From the NCBI GenBank assembly GCA_028456385.1, contig JALNQF010000001.1, positions 620,001 to 684,000 of the forward strand: a stretch of 64,000 nt of DNA, in the 5' to 3' direction. Below the pieces are notes generated by a model. The model had not been told where the DNA came from, ran no database searches, and saw nothing but the letters and a program-made list of their open reading frames with translations. The stretch comes from Ophiosphaerella korrae. Taxonomy: Eukaryota > Ascomycota > Dothideomycetes > Pleosporales > Phaeosphaeriaceae. The translations under genes and the position numbers were made by a program. Shown in pieces: positions 17,301 to 62,528 of the stretch (position 1 is its first letter; each line of letters begins with the position of its first letter).

Positions 17301-18109
17301 ATGTATGCTCAATGCTCGGGCAACAGCGCTCCTCGCTAACAAATGTCCAGGGAGGTTCTACTCGGAATTACGGGCAAAGACTTCACCCTCATCGCTGCTT
17401 CAAAAGCCGCTATGCGAGGTGCTACGATCCTAAAGGCCGCTGACGACAAAACCCGGGCACTGAACACGCATACGCTCATGGCATTCTCAGGCGAAGCTGG
17501 TGACACAGGTATGAATCGCCTCGTATGGCATTTGGGTAAAGTTGACTGTAGTCACAGTCCAATTTGCCGAGTTCATTCAGGCGAATGTTCAGCTATATTC
17601 GATGCGCAACGGCATGGAGCTGTCACCTGCCGCCACTGCCAACTTTGTTCGGGGAGAGCTAGCAAGTGCGCTGCGGTCACGGAGACCATACACAGTCAAT
17701 CTGTTACTAGGAGGTTACGACAAAATCGCGGACAAGCCTACATTGTATTGGATTGATTACTTGGCGAGTCAAGCACCAGTACCTTATGCCGCTCACGGAT
17801 ACGCCCAGTAAGCACACTCTCGACCGTGTAAATGTTGGCAGTACACATTATTATACTGTTGCTCACAAACATGCGCCATCCTAGCCAAGCTAAGCTAACC
17901 TTCTCAGGTACTACTGCCTCTCGCTGTTAGACAAGCATCACCATCCGGACATTGATTACGAAAAAGGTCTCAAGATCTTGCGAATGTGCACAGAGGAGCT
18001 CAAGCGACGTCTTCCCATCGACTTCAAGGGTGTTTATGTCAAAGTGATCACGAAGGACGGCATAAAGGATGTGGAGTACGAGGACGATGTAAAGGTGGCA
18101 GTACCGTGA
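17301..18109 (+). CDS. PRE1: 20S proteasome beta subunit, Pre1/beta-4 type
   Basis: This is a non-catalytic beta-4 subunit of the 20S proteasome core. Four exons: 17301-17302, 17351-17508, 17558-17807 and 17908-18109, giving 203 aa. The best model splits the initiator codon: AT, then a 48-nt intron (GTATGC...GCTAAC...CCAG), then G, so the protein starts [12 protein letters not shown] as in related subunits. An alternative unspliced start at 17343 would give MSREVLLG. Family landmarks are [46 protein letters not shown] and the C-terminal [15 protein letters not shown]. Like Pre1, it lacks the propeptide and catalytic Thr of active beta subunits. The last exon ends in a short acidic tail. Confidence 0.93.
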
Positions 18110-18853: not shown

Positions 18854-20355
18854 CTAGTTCCTATACCCATTGGTACAGCCATTAGCGATACCTTGAATAC
18901 CGTTTGGCACAGTGCCGTTGAATTTACCATTGCTCATACCGTTCATGACCTTAGGGTTTTTTATTGCTTCCTCAACTAGCATGTCGTTCAACGTGTACCC
19001 GGTATCACTAGCGTCGACGAAAGCGCCCTGTCGCGGGTACTCCTGCATCAACTGCTTGTGCTTTCGCAGAGCACCATTCATCTCGTCAGCGGAGACGTCG
19101 TTCAAGAAAACACACGTTCCGATAAGGTTGGGAACCGCCGCACGCAATAACCCATCTCGCGTCTTCAGTATTGCCTTGGTAACCTTTTCAAGCATATCCT
19201 CATCGAACATCTCATGATCCATCGACAGCCTAGCTCTCGAAAAGAGGTTCAACAATCGCTTGTGCTCTTCGTCGCTAAGAAAACCGCGAAGGTTAGCCAA
19301 CGTCGCCGAGTACGCCATGTCGATAGAAATGGCATGACCGTGACGCAGAGGTACGGATGGTGCGAGCTGTAACGCCATCAGCCAAGTAAAAATGGTTACT
19401 TTCATATCTTTACTTAGTGAAACGGGCTCCAAGTGTGGCCATAGGCAATGACGCGATCCAATCCGATCTCGTGGAGGCTGGGTGTCTCCAACTTGAGCAT
19501 CTCGAAAATACTGGCACGGTTTATTTCATCCGCCGCCTTCCGTACTTCAGGGTCAACATTATCACGACTAAAGAGAGATGAGATCAACTTCTCGCAGTAC
19601 TTGTCCAGTAACTCGAAGGTAGGCCTGTGACCGCCAGTTGAGATTTTGATCAACTCAGCAAAGCCGTTTCCGACTCGTGCCTCCGGAAGAGTCTTCAGAA
19701 AAGAGAAGTCGAGGAATGTGTGCATTGGAGCATAATATGCCCCTAGCCTGTTCTTGTAGTTGCCGTAGTTAACTGCAACTTTGATACTAACGTTGTCATC
19801 GATGACGGTCGCTCGAATACGGATATAGTTGGTCGCCCTGCGGTAGACCGTGCATGCAAATCTACAAACTCAAGTCAACTCTATACTTAAGATGACATCA
19901 GGCCAAAGTACCTTAAAGATGTGTTTTACCCAGCAACGTCAGCCACTAACCCTCCACCCTGTACTTGTTAGTATATTTCCTAGATCGTGATAGATGGGGT
20001 GACCTACTACTACCAAGACAGGCTCCTTACGGATGATACCAAACTCAGTCATAGAATCAACGATACTCAGAAGAGTATCCATGGATTTTGCTTTCTCACC
20101 AATCATGATCTTATGGATGGTCGAGGGGAGATTGTAGTCGTCAAAATATTGCTGCATCTCTTGTCCATAAATGTTGAAGATGTTCCAATCCATGACAGCT
20201 AGACAGCGACCCCAGCGTTCATAACATCTGGCAAGCTGATTGTTCTCGGATTTGAATATACCATCTAAGAATGATAAATCATACTTTATCTTCTCATATC
20301 CTTCAGCATGAAAGCCGTTGTTCGTCTCGATAACGGAAACTTTGAGGTCTGACAT
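18854..20355 (-). pseudogene. Sugar-phosphate cyclase, desmethyl-4-deoxygadusol synthase type (MysA-like), damaged
   Basis: The family cyclises sedoheptulose 7-phosphate; DDG synthase makes the mycosporine core. Four exons are inferred on the minus strand: 20008-20355, 19930-19958, 19414-19861 and 18854-19366 (about 445 codons). All introns have GT...AG ends (49, 68 and 47 nt). Splicing restores VLVV-GGGLVADVAG-FACTVYRR, KVAVNYGNYKNRLGAYYAP, GFAELIKIS, AYGHTWSP and PLRHGHAISIDMAYSATLANLRG, including the metal-binding His residues. Two lesions stand out. The last codon of exon 3 (19416-19414) is TAA where the family has Glu before LAPSVPLRHG, truncating about 170 residues. The loop expected to read like TLIGLIDASV reads TVIDDNV, three residues short. 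The protein ends in an Asn-Gly-rich tail. DDG synthase rather than 2-epi-5-epi-valiolone synthase is chosen from the neighbouring genes. Confidence 0.85.
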
Positions 20356-21681
20356 GATGAATGAACTTGGAAAAATAGGGTAAGATACGTTGAGTGCCTA
20401 TCTAGCCAAGGTAAGGGAGATGTCTACCACATAAACAATTATAGATTGCTTGACACTCGACTGGAGTCGAACATCGAACTCCCCTATGCACGGTTTCGTT
20501 CGATTCGTTCACAAATGCCGACAAGGTTTGGAAGAGACGCCAATCTTGCTCATGATGCATTGGTCAGAGATCCCTCGTTACGAGGGCTTGGTATTGTTTT
20601 GGTTATGGAGACTAGGCTATTACTAGCTGGCCATGATGAAATGGCTTTCCCATTAGAGCCATCTCAGCGGGAAACCCGGTTCCAGCACATGGGATTCACT
20701 GATCTCTCATGCAGAAATGGTTTAGATAAAGGCCGAATTTTCTTGGCTGCATTTGGCTAGGGATATATGTGGCGTAGCATACACTCATATCTGCTTAAGC
20801 GTGAAGACCAGAGCTGATACCGTTCATGCCACTATACCATGGACTAAAATAAAGAGCGTTACGGTGGAGTTGCTATGTTATGTACTACCTCGCCACCTCA
20901 TCATTTCGCTATGCATATCGAGGTCTTGGTATCGAAAGCTCAAAACATCTTATAGGTTCGGTGTTATGTGCCATCCAGCGAGTTGTAGGATCAAATACAC
21001 AAAAAAGTACCCTGAATAGACCAATATAGGAGCCGGATCTTACTGTTGACGCTCTACCAGATCCTACCAGTTTTAATTCCCGTAGGATAGGTGGAGTTTG
21101 GGAAGATCATGAGCAGTTGTACTAAGGTCTTCACGATACTTTTAGTGGCTTATTGGTATGATAGAGGACGCTCCAGAATCGTTGACAACTAGTACTTTTG
21201 GTGTGCCATTAGAGGGCTACCGAAACCAGTTTCGTGCCAATGATCACTTCTACATGTCCTGTTTCTCTGAGATGGGATCTTCGCATCTCCACATGTTGTC
21301 GTGACAAGCTTGCTGTAAACGGCCTAGAGAGAGTATTCAGCACTTTTTCGATGACTCTCTGACGAAGACCCATCTCTCGCAGCTGCATATACCATCCCGC
21401 GTCAGTTGTGAGTTCAAGTCACTAGCTCCACAATGGTCTACAGAGCATCACTGACTGTGGTGCCTAATGTGGCTCGAGACGCCAAATCCTATACGCCGCC
21501 ATCACATACGTTCCTGCGTTCACCTCGTCATCATTGCACTGCGGTTCCGCACTAGCCTACGCGTTACGAGGCACCCTGGTTAGGTAGTTTGGACGCGTCA
21601 ACGTCATGGTAGGTATTTTTAAAAAAAAAATAAAATAAAATAAAAAAAAATTCTCGAGAAGCGAATTAAACAGCAATAACA
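20356..21681. other. AT-rich spacer inside the relic cluster
   Basis: About 1.3 kb between the divergent cyclase and methyltransferase remnants, the expected place of a shared promoter. A 104-codon frame at 20446-20760 (+) has no recognised motif. No other gene is seen. Confidence 0.45.
21621..21650. repeat. A-rich homopolymer/TAAAA tract
   Basis: Thirty bases made only of A and T, beginning with ten A and followed by TAAAA-type units. It lies about 80 bp left of the inversion breakpoint. Confidence 0.9.
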
Positions 21682-22626
21682 ATGGCGGCTTCGATCAGAG
21701 TAAAGCATACGCAGCACAGGAGGAAGGACAATTTTTGATGATGGACGCGAGATTGAACTTCTGCACTTTATCCTCTCCCACATTCATCAGGTATTTCTTC
21801 GTTTGTCCATACTCATCAATGGCAGCCTGTAAATTTTCCGGTGACCCGCGAATTGCTTCGATGTTATGGCACAAATAGATAAAGGACGCATAGTCACGGA
21901 TCTCACCGCAGAAATAAAGTCAAAAACCATGGTACGAGCTATCTCCCATGAGAATAAATAGCTAATTTGCCAATTCAGGTAGAACTCGGCGGCTACGTTG
22001 GCTATTCTTGCATCCTTTTTGGCGAAGCAGTACGGAAAGCAGGTGGTCAGCGATGCTTCAGCCTCGAGCATGATCCAGTGTTCGCTGCTATGATCATGTC
22101 TCCTGTTGATTTAGCTGGACTATCAGACATTATCAAAGTGATCGTGGGATTAAGCGATGAATCAATAGCACGATTGACATCATCCAGTCAACTCCAGCAT
22201 ATTGATCTTGTGTTTCTCGATCATTATAAACCTGCTTATACCACTGATCTCAAACTTTGCGAAGAGTTTGATCTTTTTGAAAAAGGCTCAGTTCTAGCGG
22301 CAGATAACGTTATCAAACCTGGGAACCCCCCTTACTTGGAATACGTACAGTCCAGTGTGCAGCAGAAGGTGGGGAAGGCGAAGGTGGGTGGAGCCAGCAA
22401 TATTGAGGGCATTGCGGAAACAAATGTCAAGATGTATGAGAAGAGGTATGGAAAAGCAAATTTCTGTCAGAGTAAGGGTAACCCGAATCTGAATTACGAG
22501 AGCAAGTTGGTCAACAGCTACGAACCAACTGGAGTACCTGTAGGTTTTCTCATGCACTTGCAACGATCAATTCACATAATTAACAAAATATAGGACGGGA
22601 TAGAGATCACCAGATGTATTGATTAA
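21682..22626 (+). pseudogene. Mycosporine-type O-methyltransferase (MysB-like), broken by an internal inversion
   Basis: In mycosporine synthesis this family methylates desmethyl-4-deoxygadusol to 4-deoxygadusol using S-adenosylmethionine. The 3' part reads on the plus strand from 21967: PIQVELGGYVGYSCILFGEA (SAM-binding motif I), DLVFLDHYKPAYTTDLKLCE, VLAADNVIKPGNPPYLEYV and YESKLVNSYEPTGVP. A 54-nt intron (22540-22593) and the final DGIEITRCID with TAA at 22624-22626 follow. The preceding part (EIRDYASFIYLCHNIEAIRG, then LQAAIDEYGQTKKYLMNVGE) is encoded on the minus strand at 21730-21904. The gene therefore cannot make an intact protein. A plus-strand ATG at 21682 may mark the old start, but its frame does not match a possible N-terminal segment (DQSKAYAAQEEG) at 21693-21728. 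The 3' part has no internal stop. Confidence 0.88.
21730..21967 (-). other. Inverted 238-bp block inside the O-methyltransferase remnant
   Basis: The block is bounded by AATT at 21730-21733 and AATT at 21964-21967. Inside, the methyltransferase 5' coding sequence runs on the minus strand, ending ...SIIKN. Turning the block round at the AATT palindromes makes K-N-L-P-I-Q-V-E-L-G-G-Y continuous in one frame with the plus-strand 3' part. The exact breakpoint within AATT cannot be resolved, because AATT is its own reverse complement. Confidence 0.85.
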
Positions 22627-23419
22627 GAAAATCACTTAGCAAATAAAGCATTAATCAGAAAATTACCGATTTTCCCTCTCTCAAAGGTCAGAATTGACAC
22701 AATAGTGCATAGTCCACGTTGTAATTGCTGTACTGTCGACAGATTCTAACCGGGGGTATACTTATCGGTCACTTTAATTTCAATCACAAGTATGATTGAA
22801 TGAATGAGGATATTGAATCTGTAAATTTGCGTACAAGCTCCTGTTACTATGAGAATTTATTGGTCCCTAGTAGCTAAACAATGATAATGCCATACACTGG
22901 TATTCTTTACACCTGAAAGCAGCTAGCAATTGCTGAGAATGGGCCTAGGTGCATTAATGTGCCATTTGCTTACTGTCACAGTGATTCATGACAATTTTAG
23001 GGTTCAGGAAGTGGACCTCACCTACAACGAGCACAACACTGCCCAGGTACCTTGTAAGCGCCATGTCACCCTTTGACTAACACCAGGATTTCCAACCATG
23101 ACCAAAAATATGCTAGTTATTGTATTTCCACTCAAAAATCTAGCTTACCCATGTCAACAAGGCCCACGCGTGGTGCAGCTAACATGCGCAGAGACAATTA
23201 TGGCGTTTAGACTAAATCACCTCAGACCGACATTCCACAAGCTTGGGAAAGTGCCGTTCCGACCCATTTCGTATGTAAACATTAAACTGGGGTCTGTTTG
23301 CTTTGTGCCGAATCCTCCGTTAATAGTTTTACCGAAATCTAGATTCGTGCCGTTGACACTGCCTTGAAAGGAGAATCATTGAGGCCAGCTTCACTACACA
23401 GAGCACGAACGAGGTTACA
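22627..23419. other. AT-rich spacer inside the relic cluster
   Basis: About 0.8 kb between the methyltransferase and ATP-grasp remnants. Frames are short and broken; no family is recognised. It should contain the methyltransferase 3' end and any ATP-grasp promoter or first exon. Confidence 0.45.
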
Positions 23420-25020
23420 TTGTTAGAAAAAACATCAAAGGGGTTCGTATTATGGGCGATTTACTATAGGCATGCCGGCAAAAATATTCTTCTCGCACTT
23501 TTGAGCTTGTTTATCGCTCCTCTCTCCTTGGCCCTAGTCTTCTTCAGCCTTGCTATATCGACCCTTTATGGCCGTTCGAAATCTGTGTATCATGGTGCTT
23601 CATCAAAGCAAAAGGCAATCCTCATCACTGGCGTATCCATGACTAAAGGCCTTATTATCCCTCGGAGCCTATCTCAACGCATAGAGTGTCGCATTATTGA
23701 CGCAGATATATCATCATTTTTCCCAGGCCGGTTCTCGTCTTAGATATTGAAGTAGTATCGCCTCGAAATTCCTCAGGGGGATAAACCAAAACCATATGTC
23801 GGTTCTGTCCTCTTCATTATCCAGTCCGAGAATGTGGATCTCTGCTCATCGGTCGTAGCAGCCATCGAGGACGGCCAAGTTGTTCCCCTCGCGCAAGAAG
23901 CCATAAGAAAGGATGGCAAAGTGTTTGAAGTGATTCAGTTCAACGAAGGCGTAGTTGAAAAGTTCTATTAAAAGGATAAATTCATCGACTATATTGCCTC
24001 GCTCAACCTCAACATCCTGGAGTCCTACCGCCGCACATCAGCTGATGCAGCGCTCAATATTCTCCTTCGAGCACTCGATGACGATTCCAAGACGAAAGGC
24101 GAGGAAAGGGGAGGCAAAGAAATCTCACAAGGCAGACAATTTATCCTCAAACTTATCAGGGTCGACGACCGCGCTCGGAACGCCATGATGACACTACTCC
24201 CCTTTTCTACATCCACACAAACAAAAACGCATGTGCAAAGCCTCAACATATCAAAAGATAATCCCTTTCAACTCTAACAATTCATCCGCGGCTGCGAATA
24301 CTGTACGCACACTCTCATCACCCGCGGACAGGTTAAGGCGTTCACTTGCTGCCCGAGCTCTGAACTCTTGATGCACTACGGGTCCTTGCCCGCATACTCA
24401 CCTCTCAGTCAAGAAATGCTCAAATTTACCAAAAGAGTCGCACGAGACGGTGGAAAATTGTTCACCGGGCATCTTAGTTTCGATTTCCTGGTTGAGCAGG
24501 ACGGACAAGGCGGGGAAGGTGTGGTTTTATACTCAATTGAGTGTAACCCGCGTACTCATACTGCTGTTGTGCTATTTGATGGTACTCCTGAAATGGCAGA
24601 TGCGTATCTTTCCGTGTTTGATGACGCTGAGTCGCCGGGAAATAGCTCGCCTACGCTCGTGCATCCTCATGCTCCTACAGGTAGCTATTATTGGGTTGGG
24701 CATGATTTATTCACATTTGGTATCCTACCAATTTTAGTTGCAGTTTTTGGGCGAGGCACTTGGAAGGATGTATGGAGTAGTCTGCTAGTGCTGCTGCGTC
24801 ATTTTGTGTGCTAGAGAGATGGTACTCACACGCTTGCGGATCCTTGGCCGTTCTTTGCGTTATATCATTTGTATTGGCCAGCGAGGTTATAGAGTCATTG
24901 AGGGAGGGGAGGTGGACCCGGATCAATGTAAGCACAACGAAGATGTTTGATATATGGCCTGGTGTTTATACCGGAAATGTCTACGGTAGGGATGTAGTGG
25001 GGGTTCTAGGTACAATTTAG
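23420..25020 (+). pseudogene. ATP-grasp ligase of mycosporine type (MysC-like), multiple stops
   Basis: The family joins an amino acid to 4-deoxygadusol using ATP to form a mycosporine. One frame carries the whole remnant. An N-terminal hydrophobic part (NILLALLSLFIAPLSLALVF) is followed by KAILITGVSMTKGLIIPRSL, FILKLIRVDDRARNAMMTLL, QFIRGCEYCTHTLITRGQVK, ELLMHYGSLPAYSPLS and the signature FTGHLSFDFLV with SIECNPRTHTAVVLF. In-frame stops interrupt it at 23741-23743 (TAG), 23753-23755 (TAG), 23969-23971 (TAA), 24275-24277 (TAA, before CAA) and 24812-24814 (TAG). A one-base shift near 24890 moves the tail into another frame (ESLREGRWTRINVSTTKMFD). A few residues are also missing near 23851. No ATG opens the frame, so the start is lost or in an unseen exon. 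Confidence 0.87.
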
Positions 25021-25116: not shown

Positions 25117-27874
25117 TTAATTCGTAACAATGTCTCGGTTGAGTCCCAGATGTGAGGTACCATTCGTAATGGCCTTGACATCGCCTACCTCATCCATCTC
25201 GCGAAGTGTAAAGTCTAAGAGATAACTCTCATCGACTAGTTCCTCAACTCTCTTAAAGTGTCTTTCGCTGTATGCTTTGATAGCGTCGACAATGTCTTTT
25301 ACGCTACCTTTGGCACCAACCTTGCCAGCAGGTCTCAAGCCTGCTAATCTTGATGCAGGGTAAGATTTGACGACTGTCCACAGTATCTTTTGGGCGACGG
25401 GCGCAGTTCTGACGTTGGTGTTCCAATCGCGTAGGCGCAACAGAAGTTTGTACAGCTGCTCGTCTGCCAGATTGCCCAACACTTCGTCTACAGCATTGAG
25501 CCCTGTCATGCTTCCATCATCACGGTTTTCGGTCTCAATCACGTTTTTAAATAGCGAAAATAGGCGACCTGGTTGATCCATTTGTAGCGCCAGAGCAATT
25601 GCTTCACGGTAGTTTCCTGTGTGTGCATAGTTCTGCAATTTCTGGTCAAGCTCTACACGCTCAGACTCCGCGGTTGTAGCAGCCTCGAGGGTGGCGCTTG
25701 TTGTATCTTCCCAGAACGTGATGACACTGTCACCACCTCCCGATATAAGCGCCCCTGTAGTGGGATGTGCAACCAATGCCCACACACGGTCGGTGTGGTT
25801 ATCGAGTGTTGACATTGTCTCACCTGATACTGAATCCCAAATTTTGACAAGTCCATCACCAGCGGCGGAAGCTAGTTGAGGGCCGCGTTTATCTCGTGCG
25901 TCTACAGGCCGATATGGCAACCAAGCAAGCCTCAAGACGCTATTGGAGTGTCCCTCGAGGGTGAGAAGACAGCTATAGTCTGTCAGACTCCAGATCTTTA
26001 CTGTCTTGTCTCCACTTCCTGTTGCTATTACACCCTTATTGCCTGAATTGGGCACTTGCGAGTATTTTGATGAGAATTTGACGGTCCAAACACCGCGGCG
26101 ATGACCTCTTAGAACACCAATGGCTTCACCATCAACAGCAGAGTACACCTTGACTGTGCGGTCTTGCGATGCAGAAGCAAATAAGGTACCCGATGGGTCA
26201 ATGTCGATGGCGTTGATATCCTTTTCATGTGCTTTGCGAGTGTACTTCGCACGAAGCTTCTGCATGGCATCTTTTGTTATGTCCCATCGTTTTACTGTTC
26301 GATCTTGAGAACCGGTCACGATGTATGCTGGCGGGTGTGATAACGGATCTAAGTATGCCCCTGAAGACTCCTGTGGTATGGTATGTGGCACTGCAATCGC
26401 CCCGAGCGATTCAGCATGACCCGTAAGGACGGCAGCGCAAGTGTACGAATCGTTCTCCGGGTCGAGTCTCCACAAGCGTGCTGTGTTATCCTTGGCGCCC
26501 GTTACAAGCCAATGGCCTGACCAGTCGACATCCAGGCAAATAACAATATCTTCGTGTCCTTTCAATAACCCGATATCTGCACCAAAGTACCTAGCTCGAG
26601 TTGCATCATTTGTTGTGTCTGACTCGTTCAATGTGACTATTCGGATATCCTCCGAGTTTGTGTTCAAAGCCAGGAGTGACTTGTCACAGCCAACATAGGC
26701 AATGTCGATGACCTCGTCGTGTGTACCAGATACACGTCGAAATATTGGTAGCGATTCCATGATCTCGGATGAGGAGAGTTCTGTTGTTGGAAGAGAGTGA
26801 AAGTTGAGAATTTGGTCGGCGTGTACCGAGATTATGTAGGGTAGTGAGGCGTGATGTAAAATATCAACAATTGCATCAGTTTCAAAGCCAGGCTCCTGCT
26901 CTTGTGTGATCTCTCTGCCTGATGCGAGCGACCACAGCCGTACATGGCCATTCTCCCCACCAGAGTAGATATATCGTCCGTTGGCGATGAAGCCTGCGCT
27001 CTCAACCCCCTCCAAGGTGGCAATGGTTCGCTGTGGCTTCCACCGTTGAGACTCCCATAAAATGATTGTTTTGTCTCTGCTACCAGAAAGTAACATGTTT
27101 TCTTTTTGACAGTACTGCAACGAGCGCACGACGGAGACGTGCGAATCCAGGACCGCTGCGCTCTTCCTCTTGTGAAGATCCCAAATACGAATTTTGCCAT
27201 CTTCAGCGCCAGATGCTAGGCGGAACTCAATATTGCTGTCTGCTGAAGAGGCTGCTGAATGTGCCTGCTCTTGCTGTGACGCCCGCTTCCTCTTTTTGTT
27301 GTTCTCAGACGCGTCTTTGTGGGCTACCTCGACCTGGAAGAAGTGTAGCGCTGATATGACCCCGCTATGGCCATGGAAGGTGTGTGTGGTATATCCACCG
27401 CGGATATCCCACACTTTTATAACTCCATCTGCGCCGCCAGTGGCTACTAATGTGCCGGTGCGGTCGATGGCTAAGGTCACGACTGGCGATGCATGAGGTC
27501 GTAGCGTTCGGAGGAGCTCAAGGTCAGGGAGACCATCGTCAGTGTCCGAGGGACTGATGACATAAATGTGCATGGATAGCGATCGCGAGCATAGGATAAG
27601 ATGCGACGAAGACGGCGTTACTTGATCAGTCAGTCACTATTGTCTTGTACCCACTATGGAGTCACTCACAAACCAATGCCGTGATAGCTTCACCATCACC
27701 CTCGACTCTCCCTAGCTCTTTCCCATTTGTGAGATCTGTCAAAAGCACTTCCTCCCCCAGACTCGCAGCGAGGATGCGCCCGTCCTCGCTCAAAGACAAA
27801 CTGCCGCCTGAGTAAATGGGTTGCAATGTGCGATTGACCTCGTACGTGGTCCTTACGGCTGCTCTTTGCGCCAT
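25117..27874 (-). CDS. UTP13: U3 snoRNP WD-repeat protein Utp13
   Basis: Utp13 belongs to the UtpB part of the small-subunit processome, acting in 18S rRNA maturation in the nucleolus. Two exons on the minus strand, 27670-27874 and 25117-27620, give 902 aa, close to the family length. The 49-nt intron has a GTGAGT donor and an unusual AAG acceptor; splicing gives ALVLTPSSSHLILCSRSLSM, as expected. A dozen or more WD40 repeats are visible (for example GHSGVISALHF...IKVWDI, GAKDNTARLWRL, GSQDRTVKRWDI, GSGDKTVKIWSL). The C-terminal Utp13-specific helical domain (near LQNYAHTGNYREAIALALQM) follows. It is divergent from the next gene with 241 bp between start codons. Confidence 0.95.
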
Positions 27875-28115
27875 AGTGTGTGTATACTAAATATACCACA
27901 ACTTGTTTTCTGGTGTCGCGAAAATAGCAGCGAAATTTTGGCGCGAACGGGCTTATCGATAAAGACGTGCAGGGCGGTATGGCGCGCTGACGTCTCCAGA
28001 AGCCGCGCTAGGACTCGAGGTCGACGACAATCATTCGTGTAAAGTACTAAAGTAGGCAGACACGCGCCTGTCCTTTTTCTGCACTTGCCATGCATATATA
28101 ACCATCATAATCATC

Positions 28116-41855: not shown

Positions 41856-42842
41856 GTAGATGACGCAGACATTCAGACGCCGCCGGTTGGGATGGGATGT
41901 TGTCTGGGGCCAACCGCGAACTTGAACCTTATCCAGGTATAGCTGCGCGAACCTAAGACTGTGTACCATGTCACACAACAAGGCACAGCCAAAGGCGAAA
42001 GGCGGCTCAGCGCATACCGAACCAGGTCGTGGGTAGCAGGCGGGACGAGAAGATGGGATGCACCGGACTCTGGGAGCAGCATGCAGAATCACCAAGTAGC
42101 AATATCAACAGCAAGAATAAAGATGAACGGACTTGGATGGTATGTGGTGCATGTGGATGTGAGGACAAAGACGCTGATTGGTGCAGCTGACGAGCAAGCG
42201 AAGTGTTTCAGGGCTGGGTGTGGCCAGCCATTTTGCCGGATAGACCAGCAGGACCAGGTGTCCCCAGCAGTTTCACAAACTCCGGCCACGGTTTGAGGCA
42301 GCATGTTCAGCGATTTTGGCCTGATGGGGAGCGGGGAGCGGGGAGGGCGGAGGGGGCAGGTTGGGCAAGTACCACGGTAAGTCCCAAGGCAAGTAGCGGC
42401 AGCCCGGGGCAAGGGCCGGAGAGACGATTGCACAGACTCAGGTGTGCCTTGCTGGTGTGCCCTCTTAAAGGCATGCCTCTCATCACACCGGGCGTATATA
42501 TAATATGCAGCCCAAGCAGTCGTCCAGTGCAGCAGGTATGACAGCCAACAGGCGAAGGGAGCCAAGCAGGGACTAAGCACGACGAGCGTGTCGGAATCGA
42601 GCCTAGCGAGCGAACGGCGGACGGCCACGGCCGCACCCCAGCGCTGGACCACCCGGCTCAGCCCCCGCCTGCTAATATCGAGCCAAAATCCACGCTCGAC
42701 GGCTGTCGGCTGACGCTCCTTGTCGTCTTCTCTCCTCCCTTCCCACCACCACCACTCGGCCGCCCAGCTGCCCATGAGCCATCTCGCCCGTCCGCCCCGG
42801 CTGCCCACGGCCTGCACGTAGAAGACTCGCCCGCTCCTCACA
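41856..42842. other. Intergenic, IRE1 upstream region
   Basis: About 1 kb. The right half is strongly GC-rich and overlaps long spurious minus-strand frames that continue into IRE1. No gene is supported. Confidence 0.5.
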
Positions 42843-45800
42843 ATGCCGCGTCCGCGCCGGCCGCCTGGCGCTGGCCCGGCGCTCGCCACCATCCTCGCGC
42901 TCCTCCTCCTGCCCTCGCTCCTGGTGGCCGCTCAGCAGCAGCAGCCTCCGAGCCCGGAGCAGCACGCCCACAACAACCCGCCGGCCAGCCAGGGGGCGCG
43001 CGTCGAGCGCTCACGCATCCTCGCCCGGCAGCACCGCCAACAGCCCGCCGGCGGCCAACGCCCGCCATACACACCCATCCAAGCCCAGAACGCGCGCGCC
43101 ATAGCCACCAAGTCCTCTTCTGCTCCAGCAGTCCATGCTGTCAGAGCCCGTCACGGAGCGGGCGCTGCCTCGGGAGTCCTCGCCCCGAGTGCGCGCTCGC
43201 TGCAGGACTGGGAAGTCGAGGACTTTGTGCTCCTGGCGACCGTCGACGGCCACATCCACGCCCGCGACCGCTACAACGGAGAAGAGATCTGGGAGATTGC
43301 CGGCAAGCCCATGCTCGAGACCATCTACAACGTCTCCGAGGGCCGCCCCGGCCTGCAGGACCAGCCCTTTGTCTGGATCGTCGAGCCGCGGGAGGAGGGC
43401 GCCCTCTACGTCCTCATGCCCGGGCCCTATCCCGTGCTGCAGAGCCTGGGCCTGACGGTCAAGCAGCTGACCGACATCGCCCCCTACGCCAGCGACGACC
43501 CGGACCTGCCCGTCGTCTACAACGTCGAGAAGCGCACCTTTCTGCTCAACGTCGACGCCGCCACCGGCCTCGTCAAGCAGAGCTTCAGCCCCAGCGGCAC
43601 CTTTGGCAAGAACGACGACAGCTGCGCCGCCCCCGTCAAGCGCATCTTCAACGAGCGCGACTGTCGCGGCAACTTCGAGATCGGCCAGACCGAGTACACC
43701 ATCAGCATCCACAACAAGCGCACCCGCGAGCATGTCTGCACCATCAAGTATGCCGAGTGGGCGCCCAACAGCCGCGACATGGACCTCAAATCCCAGTACA
43801 CCAAGACCATGGACGACCAGTACATCTACGGGAGGTTCAACGGCGAGGTCATTGCCTACGACCACAAGCGCCCGCGCCCGGCCCAGCGCCCTCTTTTCAA
43901 ACAGCACCTCCCCTACCCAGTCGCACGCGTCTTTGATGTTGCCCGGCCTGCCAACGACGATAGTGCGCAAGCACCTCTAGTCTTACTACCGCAACCAGCG
44001 GGGCCCAAGGTGCTGGAAGATAAAGCCAACCAAGTCTGGCTCAACACTACCGAGTCTGGGGCCTGGTATGCGCTCTCAGAGATCAACTATCCTGCCGTAA
44101 CCGATGGCGCTCCGACAGCTCCTTGCTACAATGAGAACGAGTTGCCGGGCTGGGATGCCTTCCACTCTCTACCGGCTGACGAGAAGACACTGGTTGGGGT
44201 GCATGTGTTGAACCACCAACACGAGACTGTATCGCGTTTTCAAGCCATTGCAGCCCCTACCTACTACCCGATAGACAACGGGCAGGTCGTGTCGATTCCA
44301 CCATCGTCATCACCAACGGAGCGGCCTACCATTGATCCTCCGCCCGATCCTATCATGGAGATGAGTTCATGGTTTCCCTCCATCCAGGTCATCCTGTATG
44401 CCATCCTCATTGCGATGCTTGTATCTCTCGGTAAATGGATGGGCCCCGGTAAGCTCGCACCTGTGTGGAGTCACCTCTGGAACAAGTTGTCAACCTTGAT
44501 TCAATCCCCTAAGCCAAAGGCCATTGTCTCTATGCCTGTCGCAGCTCCTCTAAAAACCGAGTCGGTGAAGGAACAGGATGATACGCCACAGACTGCAAAG
44601 GTTGTTCCCCTTCAAGTTGCAGAAGATCCTTTTGTAGAGAAAACAACAGAACAGCCCCATCTCGATCCGCCGTTCAACCTAGAGGTAAAGGAGAAGAAGG
44701 TGACGTTCGATGTGCCTGACGAAGAGGAAGATCTTTCTCTTTCAAGAACAACGACTGCGGAGCAAGGCCCACCCGAGGATGAAGAGGCTCTGACGCCGGT
44801 CAATTCGAATACAGGTACTTTGCCTATCGCAAACGGAGCTGAAATCAACACACAAGATCCATCTGCCTCACCTGCTACACCCAAAAAGAAGAAGACACAC
44901 CGAGGAAAGCGTGGTGGACGCAAGCTGAACAAGAACCAGCAAAGGGAGGATGATGAAGTAGGCCGTATCGTTGACGCCGCAAAACAGCTCGACCCTTCAC
45001 CTAGCTTGCATCCTGATGAGATGACATTAAATGGCGACGATATGCAAGATGTTACAAACATCAAACGCATTGGTAAATTGACAATCGACCAAGATCGTCT
45101 TCTCGGCAATGGCAGCGGCGGCACTTTCGTCTTTGAAGGAAAGTGGAATGTAAGGTGCACATATATCCGACTACCAAACCACTCTAACGCATCTCCTAGG
45201 AACGCGAGGTTGCGATCAAGCGAATGCTGCCTCAATACTTTGGTCTAGCCGAACAGGAAGTAAAACTGCTTCAAGAGAGCGACCTGCACCCAAATGTCAT
45301 CCGCTACTTTGACGACGAAAAAGACGAGAATTTCCTTTACATCGCCGTCGAACTCTGCCAAGCCAGCCTTTTCGATCTCTACAGAGACGGAAGGCCTGGG
45401 GAAGAGCTCACCGAGGGACAGCAAAAGCTGGCTCTGGAAATTAGTCGCAACATTCCCCGCGTCTTATACCAGCTGGCATATGGGCTCAACCACCTTCACA
45501 GCTTAAGAATCATCCACCGTGACATCAAGCCTCAAAATATACTCATTGCGTATCCATCCAGAAACCAGACAAACTGTCCACGACTTGTTATCTCCGATTT
45601 CGGTCTCTGTAAGACACTCCCGGATAATGTTAGCACACTCATTGGAACTACTGGTAATGCCGGTACGGTTGGGTGGAAAGCACCAGAGCTTATTACACAA
45701 CCGAAAGAGTTGATGAATGGCAGCTCCACTGGCGCTTCTCGTGACTCTTCCAGTTCAACTGATCCTGTCGCACAAGGCGTCAAGCGTGCGGTAGACATCT

Positions 45801-46456
45801 TCTCTCTTGGTTGTGTGTTCTTCTACGTCTTGACAAACGGCTGCCATCCCTTCGATGACGACGAGGGATGGATGCAGATTCGTGAATACAACATCAAGAA
45901 GGAAAGAGCCAACCTGAAGCAACTACGCCTCGGGGCCGATTCCGAAGAACCGTACCACCTCATCGAATGGATGCTCAAGACGCGCCCCGAGGATCGTCCC
46001 ACGGCCGTTCAGGTCATGAACCATCCGTTCTTCTGGTCGGCGGAAAAACGCCTCAACTTCCTCTGCGATTGTTCTGACCACTGGGAGCGGGAGCCGCGCG
46101 ACCCACCTTCTGATCATCTTGCCATCCTCGAAGATTACAGCTACGATGTACTGGACCACAAACGTAATTTTCTTGGCAAGCTTGACCACGGCTTTATTAA
46201 TAGTTTAGGGAAGCAGCGCAAATACACGGGAGATAGAATGTTGGATCTGTTACGCGCTTTGAGGAACAAGAAGAACCACTACGAAGACATGGATGAGACT
46301 GTCAAAGCAAAAGTAGGGCCATTACCAGATGGATATCTGAGTTATTGGACCATCAAGTTTCCGCAGTTGTTGATGGCGTGCTACAAGTGTGTGTGGGATT
46401 GCAGATTGGAGGGCGAGCCGAGGTTCAGGCCGTATTTTGAGGGACAGACAATGTAG
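42843..46456 (+). CDS. IRE1: Unfolded-protein-response sensor kinase/endoribonuclease Ire1
   Basis: Ire1 senses misfolded proteins in the ER lumen and splices the HAC1-type mRNA. Two exons, 42843-45149 and 45200-46456, give 1187 aa; the 50-nt intron lies in the kinase N-lobe (FEGKWN-EREVAIKRM). Visible parts in order: signal peptide (LATILALLLLPSLLVAA), lumenal beta-propeller-like sensor from about residue 120 (LLATVDGHIHARDRYNGEEI), membrane helix near 514-536 (VILYAILIAMLVSLGKW), a basic linker (KKKKTHRGKRGGRK), kinase from about 740 (GNGSGGTFVF), catalytic loop IIHRDIKPQN near 877, VISDFGLCKTL, and the KEN RNase domain from about 1055 (DHGFINSLGKQRKYTGDRML). All modules are complete. The first 1.1 kb has far stronger C/G-ending codon use than the rest. 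Confidence 0.97.
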
Positions 46457-60771: not shown

Positions 60772-62528
60772 TCAAGCGCCGGGCTGCCGGAGCGTGACTC
60801 GCATCACCGTCTTGTCAATAGGTTTGGGTGTAATCGACATTGTCTGCAGTCCGTCAGCTTTGTCACAAAGGACGCGCACCGGTGGGTTTACGCTGATCAA
60901 TTCAGACTTGGTCTTGCACTTTCCCTTTTCGTCAATAACCGCCTGGCCCTTCTCGTCCGTCTCAACCTCACCGACTCCTACCTTGACAAAGTCATATCGC
61001 CGCATCATACAGGCCAGAATAACCCGGGTTTCGAGGTTGGCAAGCTCCTGGCCAATGCAGTTTCGTGGTCCACGCTCAAATGCTCTCCATGCACTCGCAG
61101 GAATCTTGCTCGCTCCTGTCATCAATTCGTTTTGGTCTTCCATCCAACTGCTGGTGTCAATGTCACCTACCCACCGCTCCGGTATAAAATCGTTTGCACT
61201 TTCTCCATAAACCCTAGGATCTCGTTGGATTATGTGATGGCATAAATAGATCACGCACTCATCCAAACACACCATTTCTCCGTCTGATGTTCGGAGTTTA
61301 AGGCCATTGTGCGACATGCGGGCCGAAGCTGCTGGTGGCCACAGTCGTAACGCCTCTTTGATACACGCAGACGTGTATACAAGCGCTTTGACCGTCTCAT
61401 TAGGTCGTGCAAGGAATACGTCTTTAGGTTCCGCATCACCGAATATGGCATCGTGCTCAGCTCGTATCTTCGCCAGACATGCTGGGTGAATGGACAATGC
61501 GTAAATCAATCTTTGCAACAGGATTGATGTCGTATCATGTCCGGCAAATAGGAACGTCTTGACTTGATCCGCGATGCTTTGCAGAGCCACTGGCGTCAAA
61601 GTATCTATATCCTTGAGTGCGAGCGCGAGTACCGAACGATCCTTTGTATCGCCTTGGCCTATTTGGATCGCATTATATTTCTCTTGGATGCATCTCTTGA
61701 CCGCAGCATCCATTCGCCGGCTGTAAATATATTTTTTGATATTTGTAAATATATTCTTTGATAACGCTAACCCATTATCACTCGAGTGTAATGCTATCAG
61801 CACTCGGAAATTTCTAACGATGTCATCACCTCCAGTTGACTCGTCTTGGGCTTTACAATCAATGTTCGTTATTATTTCTCCAATAATGTCGAAGGTTACG
61901 TTTGTGCATGCAGATTCAAGCTCGGTAGGAATACCCGACTTGGCAAATGCGTCTAGTTTCCCCATGAATGTGTATGTCTTTTCCACAATCACCGGCAGCA
62001 GGGTAAGCAGATGTTGAGGCGCGAAGGCTGGATTGAAGCGCTTGCGAAGAACTTTCCAGGCCTCGTTTTGGGCGCTCAAGAGAGAGTATTTTCCTATCAG
62101 AGACCCAAGTCCTTCTTGAATAGTTGGTGATTTTGTAGTGCTGTATTGTTGCTGTTTGGAAGACTTGGTGACTTGCTCAGCAAGTTCATGGGATGTAATT
62201 AAAGCCAGAGGATACTGGGCGGGCCTGGTGTCAAAGAACATAAAATCTGGTGATCCATGCTCTTTCCAAATGCTCTCCAAAATATAATCTAGTAAAGGGG
62301 TAAGGCACAATTCTAAAAAGAAGACGTTTGCTTACCTGGATGAACTGAGGAACCCCCAAGCTCCTTGAATTTAGCCCCAATATACCCCAAATGCCCAATG
62401 AATATGTTGCTCGACAGTGGGGTTGGGATATGGGCAAATCGATGATAGCGCCACCTATAGAGTAGGAAGTATAGACCAGCCGCAAAGGCCAGTATAAGTG
62501 CTAGTACAGCATACGGCGCGTCTGACAT
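60772..62528 (-). CDS. Cytochrome P450 monooxygenase, microsomal
   Basis: Two exons on the minus strand, 62336-62528 and 60772-62288, give 569 aa. The 47-nt intron has GTAAGC and CTAG ends and restores SVHP-DYILESIWKEHGSPDF. An N-terminal membrane anchor (APYAVLALILAFAAGLYFLL) precedes the fold. Hallmarks are the I-helix FLFAGHDTTSILLQRLI near residue 314, ExxR in IKEALRLWPP near 376, the PERF-like FIPERWVGD and the heme loop FERGPRNCIGQELA near 467 with the Cys ligand. All catalytic elements are intact. Substrate and CYP family cannot be assigned by eye. No biosynthetic partner is adjacent, apart from a possible link to the neighbouring cyclotransferase-like gene, which is weak. Confidence 0.92.

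What the first reader, a model, noticed from the sequence alone, without database searches (positions are those of the whole stretch)
18854..25020. Relic mycosporine (fungal sunscreen) gene cluster, all three genes broken
Three adjacent remnants belong to the families that act in sequence in mycosporine synthesis: DDG-synthase-type cyclase, O-methyltransferase and ATP-grasp ligase. The sequence shows family signatures in each (GHTWSP and RHGHAISIDM; VELGGYVGYS and DHYKPAYTTDLKLCE; FTGHLSFDFLV and SIECNPRTHTAVVLF). Each carries a different type of lesion. That these families make mycosporines is established from cyanobacterial clusters; that this cluster is dead and the species lost the compound by this route is inference. 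Housekeeping genes on both sides (PRE1, UTP13) look intact.
Basis: partly seen in the sequence, partly recalled or inferred. Interest (0 to 1): 0.92.

Follow-up and report, generated by a model that had tools for sequence, protein, structure and literature searches.

The report
Dead fungal sunscreen gene cluster
A fungus still carries the three side-by-side genes for making the sunscreen mycosporine, but each is broken in its own way (stop codons, shifted frames, a short stretch flipped end for end), so it has very probably lost the ability to make it.

Summary
Window 18854-25020 carries, in one 6-kb block, remnants of DDGS (minus strand), a catechol-type O-methyltransferase (plus) and an ATP-grasp ligase (plus): the trio shown by deletion and heterologous expression to make mycosporine in the fungus Phaffia (PMC10057719). 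Closest named relatives of DDGS and OMT are Phaeosphaeriaceae (Pleosporales). DDGS: three clean introns, but a stop codon before the last exon, three residues lost from a conserved loop, and 16 of 164 comparable invariant positions changed. OMT: nearest ATG out of frame, a further frame change, and a 119-bp in-place inversion bounded by a perfect 7-bp inverted repeat. ATP-grasp: five in-frame stops and a frame change near the end. No second copy of any of the three was found in the 63-Mb assembly; no lesion was seen in flanking PRE1 and UTP13. Neither a RIP signature nor a repeat was found. The sister row in the DDGS tree, Phaeosphaeriaceae sp. PMI808 (poplar roots), has a full-length annotated DDGS that also breaks invariant positions. 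Whether the species or one isolate lost the compound is untested. A known kind of event in an unusually readable state.

The parts
18854..20355 (-). DDGS (2-desmethyl-4-deoxygadusol synthase) pseudogene; ATG 20355-20353; introns 20007-19959, 19929-19862, 19413-19367; final stop 18856-18854
19414..19416 (-). in-frame stop codon, last codon of exon 3, where relatives read through
19798..19803 (-). place where three residues (GLI) of the relatives' loop IPTTVIGLIDASVSIK are missing
   Evidence: the loop is also in the Anabaena enzyme 5tpr
20356..21681 (.). single-copy gap between the divergent DDGS and OMT starts (shared promoter region by inference)
   Evidence: searched 20400-21660 and found only itself
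21682..22626 (+). O-methyltransferase pseudogene; introns 21932-21978 and 22540-22593
21684..21769 (+). OMT 5' pieces in two frames (GGFDQSKAYAAQEEGQF, then DDGREIELLHF); the ATG at 21682 is not in frame with the first piece
21766..21884 (-). 119-bp piece of the OMT gene inverted in place (relatives' residues 31-69), bounded by CTTTATC and GATAAAG
23357..24951 (+). ATP-grasp ligase pseudogene (5' limit uncertain): stops at 23741, 23753, 23969, 24275, 24812; frame change at about 24887; last piece 24889-24951
17340..18109 (+). flanking PRE1-like proteasome gene, no lesion seen
25117..27886 (-). flanking UTP13 gene, no lesion seen

Best explanation
This is the pseudogenised, still adjacent, single-copy mycosporine cluster (DDGS, OMT, ATP-grasp) of a Phaeosphaeriaceae-like fungus. 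Working relatives would convert sedoheptulose 7-phosphate to desmethyl-4-deoxygadusol, methylate it to 4-deoxygadusol and ligate an amino compound to give a UV-absorbing mycosporine. Here selection was relaxed and the block decayed in place by point changes, small indels and one inversion bounded by a short inverted repeat, with no sign of transposon insertion, RIP or wholesale deletion. Shown: families, lesions, single copy in the assembly, faster change. Inferred: absence of the compound, the inversion mechanism, and the cause of relaxed selection.
For: Family matches (fold of a relative of the ligase). By equal contig length DDGS and OMT share a contig in four close relatives: SRC1lsM3a, Ophiobolus disseminans, Ampelomyces quisqualis, Pleosporales sp. 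CAS-2024a. Disabling lesions in all three genes. DDGS end branch 0.18 against 0.0095-0.035 in the seven other rows of its clade, PMI808 (0.13) apart; OMT 3' piece 0.17 against 0.0047-0.064 in nine close rows. DDGS changes 16 of 164 invariant positions, each of seven close relatives 0 of 168. No second copy. Gene functions in a fungus: PMC10057719 (abstract and passages).
Against: Most of the DDGS frame and the OMT 3' exon are still open and conserved: the OMT piece changes 1 of 58 invariant positions, less than two of 74 control rows (4 of 62 each), so OMT broke late or kept some constraint. ATP-grasp gave 10 of 87 with six references but 2 of 48 with nine, equal to control P0004 (2 of 50). 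Some other rows also have long DDGS branches (P0037 0.24, P0040 0.23). No transcript, read or metabolite data. The first three ATP-grasp stops lie where no close relative was available.
Confidence: 0.92

Rival explanations
1. The loss is a polymorphism of this isolate; other isolates of the species keep a working cluster, as in Phaffia rhodozyma where some strains lack it.
For: Strain-level loss is documented in Phaffia (PMC10057719, PMC5103461; passages). Nothing here tests other isolates.
Against: The number of lesions and the DDGS branch, about 5 to 19 times those of seven close relatives, suggest decay older than a typical within-species variant; the sister row PMI808 also drifts (10 of 168 invariant positions).
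Confidence: 0.2
2. Part of the block still works: a shortened DDGS or the product of the OMT 3' exon keeps some function.
For: DDGS has a start codon, three clean introns and one stop; the OMT 3' exon is highly conserved.
Against: The stop removes the last exon with RHGHAISIDM; a conserved loop is shortened; the OMT piece is cut off from its N-terminal part by the inversion; branches are long.
Confidence: 0.06
3. Assembly or sequencing errors; the genes are intact in life.
For: No reads were available; a small inversion can be an assembly fault.
Against: Many lesions of different kinds over 6 kb beside genes without visible lesions, plus excess change at invariant DDGS positions.
Confidence: 0.02

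Closest known systems
Phaffia rhodozyma MYC cluster (DDGS, OMT, ATPG; PMC10057719)
   Same: The same three families adjacent in one block; its absence goes with absence of mycosporines.
   Different: Non-producing strain CBS 6938 lacks a region of about 26.3 kb with the whole cluster; here the genes remain in place as decayed remnants. Basidiomycete against Pleosporales.
Pleosporales mycosporine-type genes, e.g. Parastagonospora nodorum HBI56_040390 (DDGS) and HBI56_040370 (OMT)
   Same: 85% and 83% identical; close to each other by locus tag.
   Different: Those are complete reading frames; the window's are broken.
Phaeosphaeriaceae sp. PMI808 DDGS (P0020)
   Same: Placed as sister (95/82) with a long branch of its own.
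   Different: Annotated as one full-length protein; the state of its OMT and ATP-grasp genes was not seen.

Membership tests
Fungal mycosporine (MYC) cluster | DDGS-type sugar-phosphate cyclase, not dehydroquinate synthase | tested here: met
   many of the 120 listed relatives are named EEVS or DDGS, others 3-dehydroquinate synthase(-like) or hypothetical; relative P0011 hits Anabaena 5tpr at 2.3e-149 and dehydroquinate synthases at 6e-32 or weaker (the entry itself is titled 3-dehydroquinate synthase, its DDGS/EVS activity is recalled); AROM is separate on C69
Fungal mycosporine (MYC) cluster | catechol-type O-methyltransferase adjacent | tested here: met
Fungal mycosporine (MYC) cluster | ATP-grasp ligase adjacent | tested here: met
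Fungal mycosporine (MYC) cluster | all three genes able to encode full-length enzymes | tested here: not met
   stops, frame changes, inversion
Fungal mycosporine (MYC) cluster | mycosporine made by the organism | not testable with these tools
   needs chemistry
Pseudogene | disabling lesions | tested here: met
Pseudogene | loss of purifying selection | tested here: inconclusive
   clear for DDGS; branch length but not invariant positions for the OMT 3' exon; mixed for ATP-grasp; no dN/dS possible without related DNA
RIP-mutated sequence | positive composite index (TpA/ApT minus (CpA+TpG)/(ApC+GpT); threshold recalled) | tested here: not met
   -0.28 to -0.86 over the five parts of the block; 1-kb slices in the block -0.11 to -0.74 (19001-20000 is the highest slice of the window); whole window -0.53

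The most novel reading that the evidence does not exclude
A whole Phaeosphaeriaceae lineage (this fungus plus PMI808) is losing the sunscreen pathway in stages: one member carries a dead cluster, the other still has a full-length annotated DDGS that is failing at invariant positions. The pair would catch the loss of a UV sunscreen under way, perhaps tied to life in roots.
Probability: 0.35. Interest if true: 0.6.

Novelty: new member of a known kind. Interest (0 to 1): 0.42.

Why it matters
Mycosporines are colourless UV filters of fungi, and mycosporine-alanine is a germination self-inhibitor of Colletotrichum (title of a reference seen in PMC4974774). A cluster that is dead but still readable shows the trait being lost by decay in place rather than by deletion, gives shared lesions by which the loss could be dated among relatives, and offers a natural knock-out for asking what the compound is for. 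The 119-bp inversion between 7-bp inverted repeats is a clean example of a small mutation type that is easy to miss in gene prediction.

Tried and rejected
RIP as cause: no index shift; replacements compatible with C>T or G>A were 19 of 47 single-step ones in the window and 18 of 37 in PMI808, with only 2 each in the three relatives run as control, too few to compare. Transposon insertion: 20400-21660 and 22600-23400 found only themselves in the genome (the tool skips simple repeats and very common words). Second intact copy: none; the C334 match to NF005315 (E 5.1e-8, open frame) was not found by P0003 and is taken as another ATP-grasp protein. Order of death: DDGS 16 of 164 against OMT 1 of 58 gives Fisher p 0.048, too weak to claim. 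A hairpin behind the inversion: the strand folds no better than shuffles (z 0.68, 153 of 200 shuffles at least as stable). PMI808 OMT is not among the 120 listed of 1688 hits, but clustering at 90% and the cut list make that no evidence of loss. WIN and PMI808 share six residues absent from seven relatives, only one of them in no other reference row, and two long branches can attract, so the sister pairing is moderate. Species: not identified; a genome-size literature search gave three unrelated listings. Root life as cause: weak; Phaeosphaeria sp. MPI-PUGE-AT-0046c (a root isolate, recalled) has an OMT in the list. No Rfam match in the window.

Full report
WHAT IS THERE. The block 18854-25020 contains remnants of three genes. 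The genome is 63.03 Mb in 974 contigs and the window is contig C1:620001-684000. The best named relatives of DDGS and OMT are Phaeosphaeriaceae (Ophiobolus, Ampelomyces and Parastagonospora belong there) and other Pleosporales; the ATP-grasp search gave nine hits, one with a species name, Aspergillus calidoustus. The species itself was not identified.

DDGS (minus strand). From the ATG at 20355 the frame follows relatives once three GT-AG introns are taken out: 20007-19959, 19929-19862 and 19413-19367 (intron calls are by sequence and by fit to relatives, no RNA). The damage is a stop codon at 19416-19414 just before intron 3; loss of three residues in the loop IPTTVIGLIDASVSIK, nearly identical in the Anabaena structure 5tpr (that it lies at the active site is recalled from dehydroquinate synthase); and a four-residue gap near the C terminus. 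Against 112 more distant references, 16 of 164 comparable invariant positions are changed; each of seven close relatives changes 0 of 168, PMI808 10 of 168. Counting gaps, with 119 references, the window has 20 of 168, PMI808 10 of 168, the next row P0065 5 of 173, median 0.

OMT (plus strand). Pieces of relatives' protein P0133 lie in order: residues 2-19 in one frame, from 20 in the next frame, residues 31-69 on the opposite strand, then about 68-86 on the plus strand and, after a 47-bp intron, 86 to the end with one more intron. The flipped piece spans 21766-21884 and is bounded by CTTTATC and GATAAAG, a perfect 7-bp inverted repeat. Of 63600 segments of the same length in the window, 253 (0.4%) have such a pair within 3 bp of both ends and 5 exactly at the ends, so the repeat probably guided the inversion; the mechanism is inferred. 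The ATG at 21682 is out of frame with the first piece.

IS IT THE ONLY COPY. As far as the assembly shows: DNA searches with 18854-20397 and 21650-25020 return only the locus; PF01761 and relative P0011 find the remnant and AROM; P0133 and P0003 find only the remnant. The tool scores only its best candidates.

HOW IT DECAYED. The two gaps between genes are single-copy, RIP indices are ordinary, and G+C is lower in the parts of the block (0.41-0.47) than in the whole window (0.507), as drift would give. In a tree of 36 DDGS rows the window joins PMI808 with 95/82 support; their end branches are 0.18 and 0.13, the other seven rows of the clade 0.0095-0.035; some distant rows are as long or longer (P0037 0.24, P0040 0.23, P0124 0.47). 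In an OMT tree of 23 rows the window's 3' piece has 0.17, nine close rows 0.0047-0.064, the distant P0180 0.19. The OMT 3' piece changes 1 of 58 positions invariant in 74 references, while two control rows change 4 of 62. OMT may have broken last; the contrast with DDGS is marginal (p 0.048).

WHAT IT DID. In Phaffia rhodozyma, deletion of the cluster or of single genes abolishes mycosporine, the ATPG mutant accumulates 4-deoxygadusol, and expression of the three cDNAs in yeast yields mycosporine glutaminol (PMC10057719, abstract). The AROM deletion there does not affect production, CBS 6938 lacks about 26.3 kb with the cluster, and three Antarctic non-producers lack it too (same paper, passages; also PMC5103461, passages). 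So the intact AROM here is not expected to replace DDGS, and the fungus should make no mycosporine by this route; that is inference.

COMPARISON AND NOVELTY. Strain-level loss by absence of the cluster is known in Phaffia. A Colletotrichum paper found no mycosporine cluster in those genomes despite reported production (PMC4974774, passages), a caution that other routes may exist or clusters may be missed. A Hypoxylaceae paper mentions mycosporine-type clusters of an NRPS-like kind (PMC8403587, passages). Literature searches with mycosporine and terms for pseudogene, gene loss, Pleosporales, Phaeosphaeria, EEVS and DDGS showed no title or abstract start on a cluster decayed in place; only open-licence papers are held, and searches listed 20 of 274 and 20 of 63. 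PMI808 came from roots of a healthy Populus (PMC12074606, passage). The event is of a known kind, well preserved; interest moderate.

Noticed in passing
P0020 (Phaeosphaeriaceae sp. PMI808): Annotated full-length DDGS with 10 of 168 invariant positions changed and a long branch: possibly a second decaying pathway.
   Followed up: partly
G000:C334:599683-600273: Another, open ATP-grasp-like frame matching NF005315 weakly (E 5.1e-8); not found by the P0003 search.
   Followed up: partly
P0003: A metagenome ATP-grasp relative carries the source name 'catechol O-methyltransferase', perhaps a label carried over from the neighbouring gene.
   Followed up: no
window 21622-21651: A-rich simple repeat just upstream of the OMT start.
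   Followed up: no
window 45200-46456: Protein kinase plus Ribonuclease 2-5A domains, as in IRE1 (recalled).
   Followed up: no
window 42001-44000: G+C 0.64-0.65 stretch with long overlapping open frames on both strands; the 808-aa frame 42822-45248 has no Pfam match at 1e-5 and overlaps the kinase frame.
   Followed up: no
window 60772-62331: Cytochrome P450 frame on the minus strand.
   Followed up: no
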